From Burkholderiales bacterium 70-64 (GTDB lineage: Bacteria > Pseudomonadota > Gammaproteobacteria > Burkholderiales > Burkholderiaceae_E): DNA of 64,000 nucleotides. The position numbers were made by a program, and so were the translations under genes. The notes beneath the pieces were generated by a model. That model saw only the letters and a program-made list of their open reading frames with translations. It ran no database searches and had not been told where the DNA came from. The stretch spans positions 1 to 64,000 of the forward strand of contig MKUQ01000022.1 of the NCBI GenBank assembly GCA_001898645.1, given 5' to 3'. Shown here in pieces: positions 8,495 through 17,798 of this stretch; positions within the stretch are counted from its first letter, which is position 1; every line of letters begins with the position of its first letter.

Positions 8495-8583
8495 GAGAAG
8501 TGCCTCAGGTCTTCGGGCAAGTGCCGCGGCAGGTCGTTGCCGGCGCCGATGACGCCGCCACGCGCCCGGGCGACGATAAATCG
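8495..8583 (-). pseudogene. folA: Dihydrofolate reductase, N-terminal fragment
   Basis: The minus strand reads RFIVARARGGVIGAGNDLP and then RHLPEDLRHFSA, the opening of DHFR (family pattern GxVIGxxNxLPWHLPEDLxHF). The usual Trp before HLPEDL is Arg here, no start codon remains, and homology ends abruptly at 8495. Only about 30 of 160 residues survive, so this is debris with no activity. It abuts, head to head, the truncated nirN-like gene. Confidence 0.6.
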
Positions 8584-8589
8584 TGACGC

Positions 8590-9962
8590 GCGGGCCCGCG
8601 ACTGCCGTCGGCTTCTCCGGCCTTCGACCTGGCCCGCGCGGAACGCCTGTTCGCACAACGCTGTGCAGTGTGCCACGGGGCCGACCGCGGTGGCTACATC
8701 GGCCCGGCGCTGAACCGCGACGAGACGAAGCTCGGCCCGGGGCAGGTGGCCGAGATCATCCTGAGCGGCAGGCCGCCCACGCTGATGCCGCAGCATCCGT
8801 CCTGGCGCGGCGTGCTGTCGGCGAAGGATCGCGACCTGCTGGCCGAACTCATCACGACGCAGCCGAAGACTACGCCGTCCTGGGGCATCGACGACGTGCA
8901 CAAGTCGCTCCAGGTGCTCGTCGCCGACGAATCCGCGCTGCCGCCGGCGCCGAAATACCGGATCGACCGGATCGACGACCTGATGGCGGTAATGTCGCGC
9001 GGACGCCAGGCGGCCGGAAGCGACGCGAAAGTGCTGTTTTTCGACGGCAGGACGCACCGCAAGGTCGGCGAAGTGCCCACAGGCTTCGCGCCGCACCTGA
9101 TGGACTTTCACCCGACCGACCCGCGCTGGGCATACGTGCGCGACGACGCCGGGTACGTCCACAAGGTCGACCTGTATTCGAGGTGGAGGCCGACGCGGGC
9201 ATGATCACCGCGACGCCCCTCGCGAACTGGTTCGTGGTGGCGCTCGAGCAGGCGGGCCAGGTGTGGATCGTCGATCTCGACCGGCGCGGGATGCCGATCA
9301 CCGGCGTGGGACGCCACCTGCACGACGCGTTCCTGTCGCCCGATGGCCGGCACCTGGTGGTCTCGTCATATGACGATCACCTGAACGCGGTCATCGATCT
9401 CGCCGAAGCACGCATCGTGCGCAAGATCCCGGCCGGCTGCAAACCGCACCTGGGCTCGGGCGCGGTGGTGAAGTCGAACGGCCGCCTGCTCGGGATCGGC
9501 ACCAACATCGGCGAGGCCGACTGCAAGTCGTTCGAAGTGCCCGTCTTCGACATGAACATCTTCGACGTGGTGAAGCGGATCCCGGTCATCGGCCCGACCG
9601 AATCGCCGGCGGCGCACCCCGATGCGCCCTATGTGATCGTCGACATCGTCGGCACCGGCCCGGATGCGAACAAGATCCAGTTCATCGACAAGAACACGCT
9701 CGAAGTGGTGCGCACGATCGAGGTGGCGGGCACGCTCGGCCACTCGCACTTCCCGGAGTACACCGCGCGCGGCGACTTCTTCTACGTGAGCGCCCGTTAC
9801 CGCGGCGACCGCAGCCTGGGCATCCCGGCGGGGCATCTCGCGATCTTCGACTCGCACACGCTGCGGCAGGTGAAGTCGATTCCGGTGGAGGTGCCGGCAG
9901 GCGTGTTCTCGTACGCGCGGGCGCGCACCGTCGTCGTGGGGCTGCAGCCGACGGCCCGGTAG
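8590..9962 (+). pseudogene. NirN/NirS-like cytochrome c-d1 protein, 5'-truncated and internally deleted
   Basis: The first part, with no start codon and a TGA at 8584 upstream, reads AFDLARAERLFAQRCAVCHG. CAVCH is a haem c site, and LSAKDRDLLAELI ends the cytochrome domain. GEVPTGFAPHLMDFHPTD starts a d1-haem propeller. At about 9180 the frame changes and a blade is lost between VDLYS and AGMITATPLANW. The second frame continues with HDAFLSPDGRHLVVSSYDD, HLGSGAVVKSNG, VIDKNTLEVVRTIE-like text and a stop at 9960-9962. Family members act in haem d1 or nitrite reduction during denitrification. The lesions make this copy inactive. Confidence 0.65.
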
Positions 9963-11357: not shown

Positions 11358-12041
11358 TCACAGCAGCGCCGCCACCTGCTCTGCCGTCGCCTTGGCCGAC
11401 ATGGGGTTCTGGCCGGTCACCAGCCGGCCGTCGACGACGACCTTCGACACGAACGGCAGCCATGCCTTCTCGTAGTGCGCGCCGCGCCGCTGCATCTCTG
11501 CTTCGGCGTTGTAGGGCATCTTCGCAGCCACGCCGGCCAGCACTTCCTCGCGCCACGAAAAGCCGGTGACGCGCCGCCCGGCCACCAGCAGCGTGCCGTC
11601 CGAGAGCCGGGTGTTCAGCAGCCCGCAATAGCCGTGGCAGACCGACGAGACGATGCCGCCGCGTTCATGGATGGCGCGCGTGATGCGCTGCAACCCCTCG
11701 CTGTCGGGGAAGTCCCACATGACGGCGTGCCCGCCGGTGAAATAGATGGCACCGAAGTTCGCCGGGTCGATGTCGCCCGGCCGCGCGGTGGACGACAGCA
11801 GCGCCATCCGCGATGCGTCGGCCAGCCAGTCCTTCACGGAGGCATCGGCCAGCGGCCACTTGAGCGAGCGGGGTTCCAGCGGCGAGACGCCGCCCCGGGG
11901 GCTGACGATGCGCTGCTCATATCCCTTGGCGGCGAAGACCTGCCACGCATGGGTCAGCTCCGACAGCCACAGGCCGGTCGGCTGCGTGGGGTCCTGGTAG
12001 TGGGCGACGTTGCTGACGACATGGAGGATGCGGGGGGTCAT
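11358..12041 (-). CDS. DJ-1/PfpI superfamily protein, Hsp31-like
   Basis: A 227-residue type 1 glutamine-amidotransferase-like protein of the Hsp31/DJ-1 group. The nucleophile elbow is VSSVCHGYCGLLN, with its first Cys as the probable catalytic residue. YFTGGHAVMWDFPDSEGL supplies the conserved GGHG-like turn, and GQNPMSAKATAEQVAALL is the usual C-terminus (TGQNPxS). Relatives act as glyoxalases, deglycases or chaperones, and are often beside oxidoreductase genes. Start at 12041 was chosen because MTPRILHVVSN begins the first beta strand. It is divergently oriented from the broken SDR gene at 12225. The exact reaction is not predictable. Confidence 0.8.
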   Translation of the reverse strand: MTPRILHVVSNVAHYQDPTQPTGLWLSELTHAWQVFAAKGYEQRIVSPRGGVSPLEPRSLKWPLADASVKDWLADASRMALLSSTARPGDIDPANFGAIYFTGGHAVMWDFPDSEGLQRITRAIHERGGIVSSVCHGYCGLLNTRLSDGTLLVAGRRVTGFSWREEVLAGVAAKMPYNAEAEMQRRGAHYEKAWLPFVSKVVVDGRLVTGQNPMSAKATAEQVAALL

Positions 12042-12224
12042 GCCTTGACCTGACGAGTTATCGGCCTTTCTGGCGCTGGTGATCGGCCTTCGTCGCCAAC
12101 GCCGGGATCGCCGCCGCCCCACCATCTGCCTGCGCCAGCTCAGCTTGAGCGCCCATACCGCATCGTTGGAGTAGCTTAACCTCCTTTTGCACACACGAGG
12201 CGCAACTTCGCAAAGGCGGATGGA

Positions 12225-12801
12225 ATGCAGACGGTATTGGGGGCGAATGGCCAGATCGCCACGGAACTGGCGCGGGAATTGCGGCGCAGCTGCACGAGCG
12301 ATGTACGGCTCGTGAGCCGCAATCCGCGCAAGGTCAACGAGACGGACAGCCTGGCGTCCGCCAACCTCCTCGATGCGAAGCAGACCCTTGATGCGGTCAA
12401 GGGGAGCAGCGTCGTCTACTTCACGGCCGGCCTGCCACCGGACACCGGGCTGTGGGAAAGGCAGTTTCCCGCGATGCTGAGGAACGCCCTGGACGCGTGC
12501 CGGGCGCAGGGTGCCCGCTTCGCCTATTTCGACAACACCTACATGTACCCGCAGGACGACCGGCTGCAGACGGAGGAAACGCCCTTCGCCCCGGTGGGGC
12601 GCAAGGGCAATCGGCAAGTGGACCCTGGCCATTGCCGGGCTTTTCTCGAAGCAGGTGAGCGAGATCAGGGAACTGCTGCCCCGCTACGAGCAGGACAACC
12701 TCTTCGATTCCACGAAGTTCAAGCGCCGGTTTCCCGAGTTCGAGGTGACCACTTATCGGGAGGGCCTGGAACTGATCCGGCGAGAGTGGGCGGGCAGATA
12801 G
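12225..12801 (+). pseudogene. NAD-dependent epimerase/dehydratase (SDR), internally deleted
   Basis: The N-terminal Rossmann part reads MQTVLGANGQIATELAREL, then SLASANLLDAKQTLDAVKGS and FAYFDNTYMYPQDDRL, an atypical-SDR pattern. Just after FAPVGRKG (about 12605) the frame changes, and only the carboxy end remains in frame two: WTLAIAGLFSKQVSEIRELL, DSTKFKRRFPEFEVTTYREG and a stop at 12801. Roughly 130 residues containing the catalytic Tyr-Lys are gone. The gene is not functional. Confidence 0.65.
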
Positions 12802-12847
12802 GTGCTCCAGCGTGGCACCCTTCATTCCCGAGGGCGATGCAAGGCCT

Positions 12848-12971
12848 GCTGGAAGGACTGCGCGAGAGCCTGAGGAAGAGGGGCGCAGCCCGCCGAGATC
12901 GCCAGGCAGGCTGCCAAGGCGAAGGTCTGGAAGGTCAGGGAGCCCTACGTCATCGCGTTGACCGCCGATGC
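12848..12971 (+). pseudogene. Second, degenerate copy of the 3' end of abiEi
   Basis: This stretch aligns with 1013-1140 inside abiEi at about 90% by eye, with one 2-base gap and scattered substitutions. It starts GCTGGAAGGACTGCGCGAG and ends TTGACCGCCGATGC. The stop codon is lost (GCGCG in place of GCCTGA) and the frame is shifted. No toxin gene follows. It directly abuts the end of arsC. Confidence 0.75.
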
Positions 12972-12977
12972 GCGATC

Positions 12978-13475
12978 TCACCGCCTGCCGAGGGCGCACA
13001 GCTCGTGCTGCAGCGACAAGGCATCGAGCCGCTGGAACGGCAGCGACAGGAACAGCTCGATGCGCCGGCGCAGCGTCAGCGCGGTGTCCATGAACGCTTT
13101 GCGCCGTTCTTCGTCGCTGCCCTCGATCGCTGCCGGATCGGGCACGCCCCAATGGGCCGAAACCGGCTTGCCCGGCCAGACGGGGCAAACCTCGCCGGCG
13201 GCGTTGTCGCAGACGGTGAAGATGAAATCGAACACCGGCGCGCCGGGCGTCACGAACTCGTCCCAGCTCTTGCTGCGGTAGCCGGTGCCGGGCAGCCCCA
13301 TGCGCTCCAGCGTAGCGAGCGCCAGGGGGTGGACTTCGCCCTTGGGGTGGCTGCCTGCCGAGCAGGCGCGAAACCGCCCCCGGCCCAGATCGTTGAGGAT
13401 GCCCTCGGCCAGAATGGAACGCGCTGAATTGCCCGTGCAGATGAACAGCGCGTTGTAGGCGGTTATCGTCGTCAT
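12978..13475 (-). CDS. arsC: Arsenate reductase, low-molecular-weight phosphatase type
   Basis: The 165-residue protein belongs to the thioredoxin/LMW-PTP class of arsenate reductases, which reduce As(V) to As(III) in the cytosol. The catalytic loop is CTGNSARS (13-20), and FTVCDNAAGEVCPVWPG carries the second and third redox cysteines. HWGVPDPAAIEG is the general-acid loop with its Asp-Pro. Its ATG overlaps the stop of the upstream arsR fragment by 4 bases, as in ars operons. The C-terminal 25 residues run past the usual family end towards the abiEi fragment, so the tail may be altered. No arsB/acr3 efflux gene is present, so As(III) export must come from elsewhere. Confidence 0.85.
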   Translation of the reverse strand: MTTITAYNALFICTGNSARSILAEGILNDLGRGRFRACSAGSHPKGEVHPLALATLERMGLPGTGYRSKSWDEFVTPGAPVFDFIFTVCDNAAGEVCPVWPGKPVSAHWGVPDPAAIEGSDEERRKAFMDTALTLRRRIELFLSLPFQRLDALSLQHELCALGRR

Positions 13476-13675
13476 GCCGTGCAGGCGCGGAAGGAGTCGT
13501 TGGCCTCGCACACGCCGCCTCGGCAGCAGTGCTCGGTCAGGTAGCCGAGCAGCCCGTTCATGTGGGCGAAGTCGGCGCGGTAGTTCAGGTTGCGGCCCTG
13601 CTGTTCGATCGTGACCAGGCCGGCATGGGCCAGCTCCTTCAGATGGAAGGCCAGCGCCGTGCCCGCCGGGAGCGG
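13472..13675 (-). pseudogene. arsR: ArsR-family repressor, C-terminal half
   Basis: The minus strand reads AFHLKELAHAGLVTIEQQGR, then NLNYRADFAHMNGLLGYLTE and HCCRGG, the wing, last helices and tail Cys pair of an ArsR repressor. The recognition-helix region and everything before it is missing: upstream the frame runs into unrelated, Arg/Pro-rich sequence near 13675-13740. It cannot bind DNA normally. It is still translationally coupled to arsC by an ATGA overlap. Confidence 0.65.
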
Positions 13676-13743
13676 CAGGCCGCTCCCGGCGCGGGTCGAG
13701 CAACCCGCGCAGGCACGAGGGCACGACGGGCGAAGCGCGATGC

Positions 13744-13983
13744 CTACTTCTTCATCTCGTCCTTCTTCATGCCATTGCCCTTGGACATGGCGTCCTTGCC
13801 CATCGCGTCTTTCGCCATCGAGTCCTTCTTCGTCGAGCTCTTGCCCATGACATCCTTCTTCATGCCGTCCTTGGCCATCGAATCCTTGGCCATTCCATCC
13901 TGCTTCATCTCGTCGGCCGCGAAAGCCGACACGGAGCCGACGGCCAGGCAGGCGGCGACGAGGGTTGCGCACAACTTGTTCAT
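13744..13983 (-). CDS. Pentapeptide MXKDX-repeat periplasmic protein, methionine-rich
   Basis: After a signal peptide (MNKLCATLVAACLAVGSVSAFA) the mature 57 residues are almost only Met, Lys, Asp, Gly and Ser, arranged as units such as MAKDS, MAKDG, MKKDV, MGKDA and MKKDE. This is the MXKDX-repeat family. Start at 13983 was preferred over an ATG 24 bases upstream because it places the Lys at the head of the signal peptide. The gene lies just before a molybdopterin oxidoreductase and a cytochrome b. Met-rich periplasmic peptides elsewhere (MrpX of Azospira) act as sacrificial oxidant scavengers repaired by a YedY-family methionine sulfoxide reductase. That role here is inference. Confidence 0.8.
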   Translation of the reverse strand: MNKLCATLVAACLAVGSVSAFAADEMKQDGMAKDSMAKDGMKKDVMGKSSTKKDSMAKDAMGKDAMSKGNGMKKDEMKK

Positions 13984-14069
13984 CTGGAAGTCCTTGTGAG
14001 TCGACATGAAAAGGCACGGTTCGCGAGGAACGCGGCCGCGTTTTCAGCTGCGTTGAGCCCTGTGGGTCC

Positions 14070-14861
14070 TCAACTGCCGCCGAACCAGTTGTAGCCCTGG
14101 TCTTCCCAGTAGCCGCCGGGATAGGTATTGGTGACGAAGATCGCCTCGATGTGTTTCGGGTTCTTGTAGCCGAGCTTGGTCGGCATGCGCAGCTTCATCG
14201 GGAAGCCATACTTCGGCGGCAGCGGCTGACCGTCGTACGTCAGGGCGAGCAGCGTCTGCGGATGCAGCGCGGTCGGCATGTCGATGCTGGTGTAGTAGTC
14301 GTCGGAGCACTTGAAGCCGACGTACTTCGCATCCGGATCGGCGCCCACGCGACGCAGGAAATCGGCGAAGCGCACACCGCCCCATTTCCCGATCGCGCTC
14401 CAGCCTTCCACGCAGATATGGCGCGTAATCTGGTCGTGCTGCTGCATGGCGCGCAGTTCAGGCAGCGTCCAGCTACGCTTGTCGGCCACCCTGCCGGTGA
14501 CTTCGAGCCTGTAGTCCGCCTCGTCCACTACGTGCACCTCGCTTTCGTCGTAGTAGGCGTTGAAGGGGAAAGGCCGCGTGATCATCGAATCGGGATAGGT
14601 CGGCGCGAGTTGCGCCGGATCGAAGATCCAGCCCTGCACACGGTCGTTGAAGCGCGAGATGGCCGCAAGCGCGGCTTCCACGCTTTCGTTGTCGCTGATG
14701 CCGCAGCCCGTGAGCAGCGACAGGCCGCCCATCGTCAGCGAATGCTGCAGGAAGGCACGGCGCGCCGGCTGTTCGATCTTGCGGCCGATCAGCTTGCGGG
14801 CCTCTTCGAGCACGGAGTCCGCATCGACGTCGGCGAGGGCGGGGCGTCGTGGGATCGTCAT
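14070..14861 (-). CDS. Tat-exported molybdopterin oxidoreductase (YedY/MsrP-sulfite oxidase family)
   Basis: A 263-residue oxidoreductase with a twin-arginine-like signal placed internally: ARRAFLQHSLTMGGLSLLTG (33-52) followed by Cys53. The molybdenum ligand is Cys150 in RHICVEGWSAIGKWGG. DDYYTSIDMPTAL and GFPMKLRMPTKLGYK are further family blocks. Enzymes of this fold reduce sulfoxides, including methionine sulfoxide (MsrP), or oxidise sulfite. The N-terminal 30 residues before the RR motif are longer than usual. The stop and start overlap with the upstream cytochrome b gene by 4 bases (ATGA), so the two form a unit. With the adjacent Met-rich protein, MsrP-like repair is plausible. Confidence 0.8.
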   Translation of the reverse strand: MTIPRRPALADVDADSVLEEARKLIGRKIEQPARRAFLQHSLTMGGLSLLTGCGISDNESVEAALAAISRFNDRVQGWIFDPAQLAPTYPDSMITRPFPFNAYYDESEVHVVDEADYRLEVTGRVADKRSWTLPELRAMQQHDQITRHICVEGWSAIGKWGGVRFADFLRRVGADPDAKYVGFKCSDDYYTSIDMPTALHPQTLLALTYDGQPLPPKYGFPMKLRMPTKLGYKNPKHIEAIFVTNTYPGGYWEDQGYNWFGGS

Positions 14862-15502
14862 GATTCGATTCCTGTGCGGCCGCTCAGCATGGCGGGCAGG
14901 GTGCGGGGCACCAGCGCCACCATCACCAGGTGCACCGCCACGAAGGCGACCAGCGCGGCCATGGTAAGGAAGTGGATGCGGCGCGCGAGCTCGTAGCCGC
15001 CGAGCAGGTCTCGCAACAGGCCGAACTGCACCGACTTCCAGAGCACGAGACCCGACAGCACCAGTAGCGTGATGTCGAGCATCACGAACAGGTAGGCAAG
15101 GCGCTGTACGCTGTTGTAGTGACGGGGGTCGGCGTGCGAGAGCTCGCCGCGCAGCGCAGCGAGCGCGTCACGCCGGATGCCGGCGGGCGAAAGCGGAAGG
15201 AACCTGGCGAAGAGCCGGCCGCTCGCGATGTTCAGCGTGAGGTAGATCAGCCCGTTGGCGGCCAGCAGCCACATCGCCGCGAAGTGCCACTGGAGCGCGC
15301 CGCCGAGCCAGCCGCCCAGGGTGATCGTGGCCGGGATCTCGAACGGAAGGAACGGCGCGGCGTCGTAGATGCGCCAACCGCTGGTTGCCAGCACCAGCAC
15401 GGCGATGGCGTTGAGCCAGTGCGTGACGCGCACCCATGGCGGATGGATCGGCCGGGTCGCGATGTCGCGAGGGGCGGTAGTGATCGGGGCGGCGCTATGC
15501 AT
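14858..15502 (-). CDS. Membrane cytochrome b (b561/thiosulfate-reductase-like) electron donor
   Basis: The 214-residue integral membrane protein has about five hydrophobic segments. The first carries VRVTHWLNAIAVLVLATSGW, with a haem-ligand His near residue 27; further histidines lie at ALQWHFAAMWLLAANG, in LAYLFVMLDITLLVLSG and in RRIHFLTMAALVAFVAVHLV. This is the dihaem cytochrome b fold that passes quinol electrons to periplasmic molybdoenzymes. It overlaps the molybdoenzyme start by 4 bases. It is divergent from the response regulator at 15601, so the 98-base gap holds both promoters and probably the regulator's site. Confidence 0.8.
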   Translation of the reverse strand: MHSAAPITTAPRDIATRPIHPPWVRVTHWLNAIAVLVLATSGWRIYDAAPFLPFEIPATITLGGWLGGALQWHFAAMWLLAANGLIYLTLNIASGRLFARFLPLSPAGIRRDALAALRGELSHADPRHYNSVQRLAYLFVMLDITLLVLSGLVLWKSVQFGLLRDLLGGYELARRIHFLTMAALVAFVAVHLVMVALVPRTLPAMLSGRTGIES

Positions 15503-15600
15503 GGCTCGGATTGTCGGGCGCGCCCGCTCGCGGATTCATCACCGAGAGTTCAATTAATCGTGACAACTCCGATCGGCGGAATGCGAGACAATCCGCTGTC

Positions 15601-16326
15601 ATGGAGCCCGTCAAACGCGTGCTGATCGTCGAGGACGATGCGCACATCGCCGATTTGCTTCGCATGCATCTGCACGATGAGGGCTATGCCGTGACGCACG
15701 CGGCCGACGGCAATGCGGGCGTGCGAGAGCTGGAACGCAGCAGCTGGGACGCGCTGATCCTCGACCTGATGCTGCCGGGCGTCGATGGCCTCGAAATCTG
15801 CCGCCGGGCACGGGCTGCGGCACGCTATATCCCGATCATCATCACCAGTGCCCGATCGAGTGAAATGCACCGCATCCTCGGGCTGGAACTGGGTGCCGAC
15901 GATTACCTGGCCAAGCCGTTCTCGGTGCTCGAGCTGGTGGCCCGCGTGCGCGCGCTGCTGCGCCGCAGCGAGGCGATGGCGCGCAACGCCCGCATGGAGT
16001 CGGGCCGGCTCGACCTGGGCGGCCTGGGCATCGACCCGCTGGCCCGCGAGGTGCGGGTCGACGGCAGGCAGATCGAGCTCACGCCGCGCGAGTTCGATCT
16101 GCTGTACTTCTTCGCGCGCCACCCCGGCCGCGTGTTTTCTCGTCTCGACCTGCTCAATCAGGTCTGGGGCTACCAGCACGACGGCTACGAGCACACGGTC
16201 AACACCCACATCAACCGGCTGCGCATGAAGATCGAGGCCGACCCGGCACAGCCGCGCCGCATCCTCACCGTATGGGGCCGCGGCTACAAGCTGGCCGGCA
16301 GCGGTGCCGACGAGGCCTCCGCATGA
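15601..16326 (+). CDS. OmpR/PhoB-family response regulator of the MXKDX/molybdoenzyme cluster
   Basis: A 241-residue regulator: acidic pair E11/D12/D13, phospho-acceptor D55 (LILDLMLPGVDG), T82 and K105 in LAKPFSVLELVARV, then a winged helix ending RRILTVWGRGYKLAG. The ATG at 15601 was chosen because MEPVKRVLIVEDD starts the first strand; a longer frame to 15511 has no domain support. It overlaps the histidine kinase gene by 4 bases. Its divergent position to the cytochrome b/molybdoenzyme genes suggests it controls them, like HprR (YedW) beside msrPQ in E. coli; this is inference. Confidence 0.85.
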   Translation: MEPVKRVLIVEDDAHIADLLRMHLHDEGYAVTHAADGNAGVRELERSSWDALILDLMLPGVDGLEICRRARAAARYIPIIITSARSSEMHRILGLELGADDYLAKPFSVLELVARVRALLRRSEAMARNARMESGRLDLGGLGIDPLAREVRVDGRQIELTPREFDLLYFFARHPGRVFSRLDLLNQVWGYQHDGYEHTVNTHINRLRMKIEADPAQPRRILTVWGRGYKLAGSGADEASA

Positions 16327-17798
16327 GGCCGCTCTCGCGCTGGAGCCTGTCCCACCGCCTGTCCGCGGTGTTCGCGTTGCTGTTGCTGGCCTGTTGCGGC
16401 GCGTCGGCCTGGTTGCAGATGGCGGCGAGCGGGCGATACGAGCAGGAGGTGACGCAGCGCCTTTCGGGCGGCCTGGCCGCGCACATCGCGGGCAGCGCGG
16501 AGCTGATGCGCAGCGACGGCCTGAACCAGGCCGCCGTCAAGGCCCTGTTCGACCAGTTGATGGCGGTGAACCCGAGCGTCGAGGTCTACCTGCTCGATCC
16601 GGAAGGCCGTATCGTGGCGCAGGCCGCGCCGCCCGGACATCTGAGGCGGGACCGCGTCGATCTGGAGCCGGTGCGACAACTGCTGGCCGGTGCGCCGCTG
16701 CCCGTGCTCGGCGACGATCCGCGCGGCGAGGTTGGCGAGCGCAAGATCTTCAGCGTGGCGCCGATGGAGGTGAACGAGCGCGATACCGGCTATGTCTACG
16801 TCGTGCTGTCGGGCGAGGAGCGCGAGGCGCTGGTCGCCAATGCCGCCGCGAGCAACGTGCTGCGCACCATGCTGTGGTCGATGGCGCTGGTCGCCTCGCT
16901 CGGCCTGCTGGCCGGGCTTGCTGCGTTCCGCCTCATCACGCGGCCGTTGCGCGAGTTGACTGGCGCTGTGCAGCAGGTCGACGCGGACGGTGTGGCGTCC
17001 TTGCAGCAGGCGGCCCCGGCGATCGACCGGCTCGCGAACGAGGGCGGCGGCGAGATCGCCACGCTCGGCCGGGCCTTCCGCCAGATGACGCAGCGTATCG
17101 CCGATCAATGGCGCGAGCTTGCCGCGCAAGACCAGCAGCGGCGCGAACTGTTCGCCAACATCTCGCACGACCTGCGCACGCCGCTCACCTCGCTGCATGG
17201 CTACCTCGAGACGCTGCTGATGAAGGCCGACATGCTGGAGCCTGCCGAGCGGCGCCGCTACCTCGAGATCGCGCTCGGTCAGAGCCGCAAGGTCGGTCGT
17301 CTCGCGCAGGAGCTGTTCGAGCTTGCGCGTCTGGAATATGGCGTGCTCAAGCCGGAGAAGGAGAGTTTCGCGTTGCCCGACCTGGTGCAGGATGTACTGC
17401 AGAAGTTCGAGCTTGCAGCCGAGGCTCGACGCCAGCGCCTGGTGGCCGAGATCGCCCCGGGTTTGCCGGCGGTCACGGCCGACCTGGGGATGATCGAACG
17501 TGTGCTGACCAATCTGCTCGACAATGCCATTCGTCACACGCCTGAAGGCGGAGAGATCGCCGTCTACCTGGCACGCGACGGCGCCGGCGTTCGTGTAGAG
17601 GTCAGCGACACGGGCCCGGGTATTCCGCAGGAACTGCGGCCGGTGATCTTCACGCGCCCGGCTTTCGCGTCGAGCGGCGATCGCGGCGGCGGACTGGGAT
17701 TGATGATCGTGCGGCGGATCCTGCAACTGCACGGCAGCGACATCCGCCTGGTTCCGCGTTCCGGGCGCGGAGCGGTCTTCTCCTTCGAGCTCGAGTAG
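16323..17798 (+). CDS. Sensor histidine kinase of the MXKDX/molybdoenzyme cluster
   Basis: A 491-residue kinase with TM1 at about 12-33, a periplasmic domain of about 150 residues (with PSVEVYLLDPEGRIVAQ, PAS/Cache-like), TM2 at about 180-204, HAMP, and the phospho-acceptor His282 in ISHDLRTPLTSLHGY. The ATP-binding part has RVLTNLLDNAIRHTPEGG, VSDTGPGIP and GGGLGLMIV. The phosphatase helix and G boxes are complete, so it should be active. The F box reads FTRPAFASSG. It presumably senses an envelope oxidant or redox signal given its neighbours, but no sensing residue is evident. Confidence 0.85.
   Translation: MRPLSRWSLSHRLSAVFALLLLACCGASAWLQMAASGRYEQEVTQRLSGGLAAHIAGSAELMRSDGLNQAAVKALFDQLMAVNPSVEVYLLDPEGRIVAQAAPPGHLRRDRVDLEPVRQLLAGAPLPVLGDDPRGEVGERKIFSVAPMEVNERDTGYVYVVLSGEEREALVANAAASNVLRTMLWSMALVASLGLLAGLAAFRLITRPLRELTGAVQQVDADGVASLQQAAPAIDRLANEGGGEIATLGRAFRQMTQRIADQWRELAAQDQQRRELFANISHDLRTPLTSLHGYLETLLMKADMLEPAERRRYLEIALGQSRKVGRLAQELFELARLEYGVLKPEKESFALPDLVQDVLQKFELAAEARRQRLVAEIAPGLPAVTADLGMIERVLTNLLDNAIRHTPEGGEIAVYLARDGAGVRVEVSDTGPGIPQELRPVIFTRPAFASSGDRGGGLGLMIVRRILQLHGSDIRLVPRSGRGAVFSFELE

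What the first reader, a model, noticed from the sequence alone, without database searches (positions are those of the whole stretch)
13744..17798. Possible periplasmic oxidant-scavenging module: Met-rich MXKDX protein + Tat molybdoenzyme + cytochrome b + two-component system
Seen: a secreted protein built from MXKDX units (about one residue in five is Met) directly precedes a Tat-signal molybdopterin enzyme (Mo-ligand Cys150) and a membrane cytochrome b with overlapping genes, and a kinase/regulator pair is divergent. Known: MsrP/YedY repairs periplasmic Met-sulfoxide, Azospira MrpX is a sacrificial Met-rich peptide paired with YedY, and E. coli msrPQ sits with hprRS. Inference: here a two-component system, not a sigma factor, drives a scavenger-plus-repair circuit in which the MXKDX protein is the oxidisable sink. 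The molybdoenzyme is shorter than MsrP and the cytochrome b is not MsrQ, so this would be a variant.
Basis: partly seen in the sequence, partly recalled or inferred. Interest (0 to 1): 0.75.

Follow-up and report, generated by a model that had tools for sequence, protein, structure and literature searches.

The report
Two-component-controlled periplasmic methionine-repair operon
This stretch holds a five-gene defence system against oxidation of the cell envelope: a sensor-regulator pair that probably switches on a methionine-rich decoy protein together with a membrane-fed molybdenum enzyme that probably repairs oxidised methionine; the same kind of system is already known from E. coli, and its relatives in other bacteria point to methionine repair.

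Summary
In detail: cytochrome b, Tat-signal molybdoenzyme and MXKDX protein form one operon beside a divergent kinase/regulator pair. The module is conserved, and the enzyme groups with neither MsrP nor sulfite dehydrogenases. The TCS-driven form is already published: UPEC OrhK/OrhR-C3566-C3567-C3568 has the same five genes in the same layout (PMC8550376). ECF-sigma forms are known from Brucella (BcrXQP) and Azospira (MrpX).

New here: (1) the inverted repeat reported as the likely OrhR site (TCAC-N17-GTGA) lies within about 260 bases upstream of the operon in 23 of 26 TCS-linked loci and 0 of 31 sigma-linked loci, and once in the window's genome. (2) All 12 loci with the box but no TCS seen nearby have an OrhK ortholog elsewhere in the genome. 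(3) Of 11 unlinked TCS regions fetched, 10 lie beside MsrA/MsrB and 1 beside MsrP/MsrQ; kinases of 36-44% identity do so in 0 of 12. One sensor family thus appears to govern three unrelated MetO-repair machines, the best support I found for the MetO-reductase reading. No enzyme activity is shown for this family in what I read. Verdict: new member of a known kind, with a testable new generalisation.

The parts
13744..14007 (-). MXKDX Met-rich secreted protein (last gene of the operon; likely start 13983, signal peptide, 56-residue mature part)
   Evidence: TIGR02953 67.6 bits vs cut-off 41; 10 Met of 56; only match of this family in the genome
14070..14861 (-). SUOX-fold molybdoenzyme, Tat signal (RR34-35) with lipobox LTGC53, Mo-ligand Cys150 in a short CVEGWS loop
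   Evidence: PF00174; profile-profile match to MsrP; tree; lipobox in 116 of 117 loci
14858..15502 (-). Membrane cytochrome b (PF01292 Ni_hydr_CYTB), first gene, probable quinol-side electron donor of the molybdoenzyme
   Evidence: directly upstream of the molybdoenzyme in 116 of 117 loci
15539..15563 (-). OrhR-type box TCACGATTAATTGAACTCTCGGTGA (TCAC-N17-GTGA) between the divergent operons; only match in the genome with up to 2 mismatches to the 25-base pattern
   Evidence: spacing and half-sites of the inverted repeat reported at the OrhR target promoter
15601..16326 (+). OmpR/PhoB-family response regulator, OrhR ortholog
   Evidence: PF00072+PF00486; 59% and 66% identity to the two E. coli versions
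16323..17798 (+). Sensor histidine kinase, OrhK ortholog, with CysCys (24-25) in the first transmembrane segment
   Evidence: HAMP/HisKA/HATPase_c; 46-47% identity to the E. coli versions; Cys in TM1 region in 23 of 23 aligned

Best explanation
The locus is an OrhKR-type envelope-oxidation defence operon. Oxidant reaching the periplasm is sensed by the kinase (possibly through the Cys in its first transmembrane segment; inferred). The regulator binds the TCAC-N17-GTGA box between the divergent operons and switches on cytochrome b, molybdoenzyme and MXKDX protein. The exported MXKDX protein offers many Met residues that are oxidised in place of envelope proteins (inferred from MrpX). Electrons from the quinol pool pass through the cytochrome b to the lipid-anchored molybdoenzyme, which reduces Met sulfoxide on the MXKDX protein and other envelope proteins (inferred). 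Shown here: gene content, order, box, orthology, conservation, and the TCS family's association with other MetO reductases. Shown elsewhere for the UPEC ortholog: induction by H2O2, regulator binding to the promoter region, protection of the cell.
For: Same five genes in the same divergent order in Rahnella, an E. coli IncF plasmid and the E. coli chromosome. The chromosomal copy carries exactly the published TCACA-N15-TGTGA repeat, and two strains named in the paper (S65EC, 536) are among the hits. The UPEC paper (abstract, passages, sections 9, 10, 12 read) reports direct TCS activation, H2O2 response and peroxide resistance through C3566/C3567. Box within about 260 bases upstream in 23 of 26 TCS loci, 0 of 31 sigma loci, shuffles 0.056 of 26. 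Of 11 unlinked TCS regions fetched, 10 lie by MsrA/MsrB and 1 by MsrP/MsrQ; a twelfth (L244) has both MsrA/MsrB and the cassette beside the TCS. One set of MsrA, MsrB, MsrP and MsrQ proteins was checked and scores over NCBIfam cut-offs. In the order survey 8 of 10 OrhK orthologs lie by a MetO module (this cassette 4, MsrAB 4) against 0 of 12 kinases of 36-44% identity, p 1.4e-4; counting MsrAB alone, 4 of 10 against 0 of 12, p 0.029. The active-site loop is MsrP-like.
Confidence: 0.8

Rival explanations
1. The enzyme is a sulfite dehydrogenase (SorA/SorT/SoxC type) and the MXKDX protein is unrelated to its chemistry.
For: PF00174; structural Z to SorA equals that to YedY within error (17.6 vs 17.2).
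Against: Scores far under the sulfite-enzyme cut-offs (SorA 53.6 of 600, SoxC 38.5 of 420, SorT 15.2 of 570). It lacks the CxGN(S/R)R loop insertion after the Mo-Cys seen in the aligned SorA and plant sulfite oxidase and has the short CVExWS loop of YedY/MsrP instead. Its regulator family sits by MsrAB and MsrPQ elsewhere.
Confidence: 0.05
2. It is a reductase of small S-/N-oxides (free MetO, DMSO, biotin sulfoxide, chlorine or other oxyanions) rather than of protein MetO, with the MXKDX protein acting separately as a scavenger.
For: 25 of 117 loci lack an MXKDX hit and some MXKDX genes stand without an adjacent molybdoenzyme beside SigF/NrsF-like genes (L106, L109, L110, L112, L114), so the two can be uncoupled.
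Against: All 24 loci with the local TCS have MXKDX; the TCS family is otherwise tied to protein-MetO reductases.
Confidence: 0.12
3. It is a copper or heavy-metal module: the Met-rich protein binds Cu(I) and the TCS is a CopRS relative.
For: The kinase and regulator match the heavy-metal subfamily models, though below cut-off (158.8 of 292.6 and 174.1 of 279.2). Sigma-F of Caulobacter, which controls a YedY homologue, answers to chromium and cadmium (PMC3511200 passages).
Against: No metal transporter or oxidase in the module; the TCS relatives sit by MsrAB/MsrPQ; the UPEC ortholog answers to H2O2.
Confidence: 0.08

Closest known systems
OrhK/OrhR - C3566-C3567-C3568 of uropathogenic E. coli (PMC8550376)
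   Same: Same five genes and divergent order; same box spacing; kinase 46%, regulator 59%, molybdoenzyme 58%, MXKDX 39% over aligned residues to the E. coli chromosomal copy that I take to be this locus.
   Different: In the window no toxin operon follows; the cassette is followed by an ArsR remnant and a low-molecular-weight phosphatase/arsenate-reductase-like gene. The E. coli copy fetched has a cytochrome b flagged as frameshifted.
BcrXQP under the ECF pair BcrS/AbcS of Brucella (PMC8315932, passages)
   Same: MXKDX protein plus a putative MetO-reductase pair, HOCl-induced, protective against HOCl.
   Different: ECF sigma/anti-sigma instead of a TCS. I did not compare its sequences.
SigF/NrsF - YedYZ - MrpX of Azospira (Melnyk 2015, not held; via PMC4623255 and PMC5748585 passages)
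   Same: Met-rich peptide with a putative MetO reductase pair against hypochlorite.
   Different: Sigma-factor control. Sequences not retrieved, so orthology of its enzyme and cytochrome to these is untested.
MsrP/MsrQ with HprRS of E. coli K-12
   Same: SUOX-fold Tat enzyme with a membrane haem partner, its genes near those of a TCS; Mo-Cys and the Glu two residues on are aligned.
   Different: Enzyme outside the MsrP clade; cytochrome b PF01292, not MsrQ; lipoprotein signal; kinase 22-23% to HprS.
Secreted MsrA / Tat MsrB / CcdA-type thiol system
   Same: Its operon is divergent from an ortholog of this TCS, with the same box between them, in Pseudomonas and Burkholderiales genomes.
   Different: Thiol chemistry and unrelated proteins.

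Membership tests
OrhKR system (UPEC c3564-c3568) | TCS divergent to cytochrome b - molybdoenzyme - Met-rich peptide | tested here: met
OrhKR system (UPEC c3564-c3568) | Inverted repeat TCACA-N15-TGTGA (TCAC-N17-GTGA) upstream of the cytochrome gene | tested here: met
   TCAC-N17-GTGA at 15539-15563, only site in the genome; the inner A/T pair of the published repeat is not kept
OrhKR system (UPEC c3564-c3568) | Oxidant induction and protection | not testable with these tools
   published for UPEC only
MXKDX protein family TIGR02953 | Score over the curated cut-off | tested here: met
   67.6 of 41 bits
MsrP | Score over the curated cut-off NF003767 / place inside the MsrP clade | tested here: not met
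   77.5 of 207 bits; separate clades, 96/99 and 99/98
MsrP | Short Mo-Cys loop CVExWS, no sulfite-oxidase insertion | tested here: met
MsrP | Asn at mature position 45 near the cofactor (role recalled) | tested here: inconclusive
   aligns to Ala102 at the very edge of the profile alignment
MsrQ | MsrQ model over its cut-off | tested here: not met
   only PF01292/DUF4405 and hydrogenase-, formate-dehydrogenase- and thiosulfate-reductase-type cytochrome b models match
Sulfite dehydrogenases (SorA, SorT, SoxC) | Score over curated cut-offs and CxGN(S/R)R loop | tested here: not met
ECF SigF/NrsF-controlled MrpX systems | Linked sigma/DUF1109 genes and GTAAC...CGnA promoter | tested here: not met
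   no such gene near and no such promoter in any of 26 TCS loci, the window included; present in 17 of 31 sigma loci
HprRS | Orthology to HprS/HprR | tested here: not met
   22-23% and 37% identity

The most novel reading that the evidence does not exclude
OrhKR is a general two-component sensor of envelope methionine oxidation. Through one conserved box it drives whichever of three unrelated MetO-repair machines a genome owns: the lipid-anchored molybdoenzyme/cytochrome-b561-type pair with its MXKDX decoy, secreted MsrA/MsrB with a CcdA-type electron feeder, or MsrP/MsrQ. The molybdoenzyme pair here is thus a third, distinct lineage of periplasmic MetO reductase, not MsrPQ as the papers label it, and its control has been exchanged between this TCS and an ECF sigma factor.
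Probability: 0.7. Interest if true: 0.62.

Novelty: new member of a known kind. Interest (0 to 1): 0.45.

Why it matters
The substrate of the MXKDX-linked molybdoenzymes is unproven in the papers I read, which call them putative and equate them with MsrPQ. The regulon evidence (one TCS family, one box, three unrelated MetO reductases) gives an independent argument for MetO and a clean prediction: in Pseudomonas with the TCS in trans, the molybdoenzyme cassette and msrAB should be induced together by the same oxidant through the same kinase. It also shows that the cassette is widespread, is carried on E. coli plasmids as well as chromosomes, and can be wired to two unrelated signalling systems.

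Tried and rejected

Caveats on counts. L181 was put with the TCS loci by hand because its kinase fell just under my 50% threshold. The 57 'other' loci leave out those with too little upstream sequence (61 with a cytochrome b). The box count depends on reach: at 420 bases one sigma locus (L172) and L086 gain a spaced match. L126 has only 213 bases of contig upstream of the cytochrome b match, so a TCS next to it could not have been seen; its kinase lies on another contig. Of the 12 box-bearing genomes with the TCS in trans, 7 regions were fetched and 5 were not. Of 22 genomes whose best kinase was below 57% identity, 12 loci were fetched as controls and 10 were not; two of the 12 are short stretches (L295, L303). 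The looser box pattern was written from boxes already seen, some in the same genomes. In the tree only the E. coli and Citrobacter MsrP were named by a record or a family scan; the other 15 rows of that group were called MsrP by eye from their motifs. In one search L004 gave no match and was dropped; two rows were trimmed before the tree.
Full report
What is there. The minus strand carries cytochrome b (14858-15502), molybdoenzyme (14070-14861) and MXKDX protein (13744-14007) in that order of transcription; the plus strand carries a response regulator (15601-16326) and a histidine kinase (16323-17798). The molybdoenzyme has a twin-arginine signal that ends in a lipobox, LTGC53. Both motifs recur in 116 of 117 loci, so the enzyme is probably a Tat-exported lipoprotein, an inference from motif alone.

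It is conserved. In 300 genomes of the order, 31 have a molybdoenzyme hit at E <= 1e-100, and one more (G052) has a 68%-identical fragment; the next full-length group is at 37-45% identity. An MXKDX protein over the family cut-off occurs in 24 of 300; 22 of these 24 are among those 32 genomes, and 19 of the 22 have the two genes within 2.5 kb. The two same-genus genomes in the sample lack both the ortholog and MXKDX, so the cassette is patchy. In a survey of 117 loci from order genomes, plasmids and named genomes, the cytochrome b directly precedes the enzyme in 116 (L190 is cut by the contig end), and an MXKDX hit lies within 3 kb in 92.

What kind of enzyme. NCBIfam gives MsrP 77.5 bits (cut-off 207) and SorA 53.6 (cut-off 600). 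In a tree of 47 PF00174 proteins the family is its own clade (96/99), apart from a group of 17 MsrP-type proteins (99/98) (15 of the 17 I called MsrP by motif). One long row (L001, the outgroup) makes the deeper order unsure. The window's own genome also has a protein (L003) that falls in the MsrP group. Profile-profile alignment to MsrP covers 155 columns (probability 99.7%) and pairs Cys150 and Glu152 with the MsrP Mo-ligand Cys and the Glu two residues on. The post-Cys loop is the short CVEGWS form, without the insertion seen in the aligned SorA and plant sulfite oxidase. The predicted model (mean pLDDT 71.8; core blocks 111-240 mostly 80 or more) has the sulfite-oxidase fold, and SorA and YedY tie.

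It is the OrhKR system. The UPEC paper (PMC8550376; abstract, passages, sections 9, 10 and 12 read) describes a TCS, C3564/C3565 (OrhK/OrhR), that activates cytochrome B C3566, the MsrP-like C3567 and the Met-rich peptide C3568. It reports activation by H2O2, regulator binding to the promoter region, and protection against tert-butyl hydroperoxide through C3566/C3567. The five-gene block matches 351 of 5,426 E. coli genomes (at least 80% of the block in 344), at 292 chromosomal and 75 plasmid places. A chromosomal copy has exactly the published TCACA-N15-TGTGA repeat. The window's kinase, regulator and enzyme are 46%, 59% and 58% identical to it over aligned residues. That this chromosomal copy is c3564-c3568 rests on the repeat, the layout and the strain names, not on CFT073's own record.

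Two wirings of one cassette. Among the 117 loci, 24 have the orthologous TCS (23 by threshold, L181 by hand) and 31 have a SigF-like factor, 30 of them with a DUF1109-type partner; none has both nearby. The box TCAC-N17-GTGA lies within about 260 bases upstream of cytochrome b in 23 of 26 TCS loci (24 plus two from E. coli), 0 of 31 sigma loci and 12 of 57 others; mononucleotide shuffles give 0.056 of 26; other spacings from 8 to 26 give at most 1 per group. Reaching to 420 bases adds one sigma locus (L172) and one other (L086, whose site lacks the conserved core). The sigma-type GTAAC-N15-20-CGnA is in 17 of 31 sigma loci, 3 of 57 others and 0 of 26 TCS loci. In the window's 4.7-Mb genome the box, searched as a 25-base pattern with up to 2 mismatches, occurs only here.

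The TCS works in trans elsewhere, beside other MetO reductases. I gave 34 genomes. Twelve are box-bearing genomes without a TCS seen near the cassette; all 12 hold an OrhK ortholog (47-59%). Of 20 box-less genomes (19 distinct) 5 (4 distinct) do; the two others, L093 and L178, have the TCS nearby but no box. I fetched 12 regions around such kinases: 7 from box-bearing genomes, 4 from box-less ones, and L178's own region (L244). In 11 the regulator is divergent from a cluster with MsrA (11 of 11), MsrB (10 of 11; not picked up in L234) and a CcdA-type gene (8 of 11), and in 1 (Citrobacter sp. On2M) from MsrP/MsrQ; the box lies between them in 11 of 12, L244 being the exception. L244 also has the cassette on the other side of the TCS, so 11 regions are truly unlinked. 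In three of the four box-less genomes (those of L169, L174/L081 and L192) the cassette itself is sigma-linked while the TCS sits at MsrA/MsrB, so both wirings can coexist in one genome. The reference MsrA, MsrB, MsrP and MsrQ are over their curated cut-offs.

Order survey and control. In 300 genomes, 10 have a kinase of at least 57% identity. Four lie by the cassette (G000, G138, G237, and G058 at 4.7 kb), four by MsrA/MsrB (G133, G158, G207, G255), and two by neither. One of these two, G285, has the box before its distant MsrA-CcdA-MsrB operon (L288). Of 12 fetched loci of kinases with 36-44% identity, none lies by an Msr gene or the cassette: 8 of 10 against 0 of 12 gives Fisher p 1.4e-4. 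Since the cassette is the thing in question, the stricter count is MsrA/MsrB alone: 4 of 10 against 0 of 12, p 0.029. A looser box pattern, written from boxes already seen, gave 17 rows in 15 of 300 genomes; the reversed-pattern control gave 9 (my count). Eight of the 17 rows lie in kinase-bearing genomes, and all eight are at a cassette or MsrA/MsrB operon; the other nine look like chance, but I did not inspect them.

Sensor hint. All 23 kinases aligned have a Cys in the first transmembrane region; in L093, which lacks the box, it is near the start of the segment rather than in its middle. HprS has none there. That this Cys senses oxidant is only a guess.

Shown and inferred. Shown by sequence: anatomy, orthology, box, co-occurrence, association of the TCS family with three MetO-reductase types. 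Published for relatives: oxidant induction and protection. Inferred: substrate, electron route, decoy function, sensing chemistry. Related ECF systems control msr genes in Bradyrhizobium (PMC3420878 passages) and a YedY homologue in Caulobacter (PMC3511200 passages; there msrA homologues did not respond), which fits two signalling systems sharing one task.

Noticed in passing
window 13472-13743 (-): Directly downstream of MXKDX lies an ArsR-like fragment that matches only the C-terminal half of the metalloregulator model (positions 41-76 of 77); its N-terminal part is missing, which suggests an old insertion or recombination junction beside the cassette.
   Followed up: partly
window 11358-12053 (-): DJ-1/PfpI family gene about 2 kb beyond the cassette. 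In E. coli K-12, hchA (a deglycase, DJ-1-like as I recall) is next to hprSR-hiuH-msrPQ. May be coincidence.
   Followed up: no
window 8583-9962 (+) and 12225-13427 (+): A cytochrome d1-type propeller and an epimerase/NAD-binding gene each match only part of their model within the listed frame, suggesting frame breaks or sequence errors.
   Followed up: no
L199 (E. coli plasmid): The five-gene cassette also travels on E. coli plasmids: a close version of the three-gene operon is in 73 of 5,426 E. coli genomes, all on plasmids; the one fetched is typed IncF and conjugative.
   Followed up: partly
L098-L104: A sister group of 35-40% identity pairs the molybdoenzyme with a cytochrome b that is longer in the full-length rows read, and has no MXKDX hit; a lipobox is visible in the five rows that I could read, L098-L102.
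   Followed up: no
L106, L109, L110, L112, L114: MXKDX genes without an adjacent molybdoenzyme stand divergent to SigF/NrsF-like genes, so the Met-rich protein can be deployed apart from the enzyme.
   Followed up: no
L093/L291 (G058, same family as the window): OrhK-like kinase 4.7 kb upstream of the cassette on the same strand, no box and no Cys in the middle of the first transmembrane segment: an outlier that may be wired differently.
   Followed up: partly
L296, L299, L300: Kinases of 40-44% identity also have a TCAC-N17-GTGA site with a different core near their regulator gene, so the half-site spacing may be older than the MetO link.
   Followed up: no
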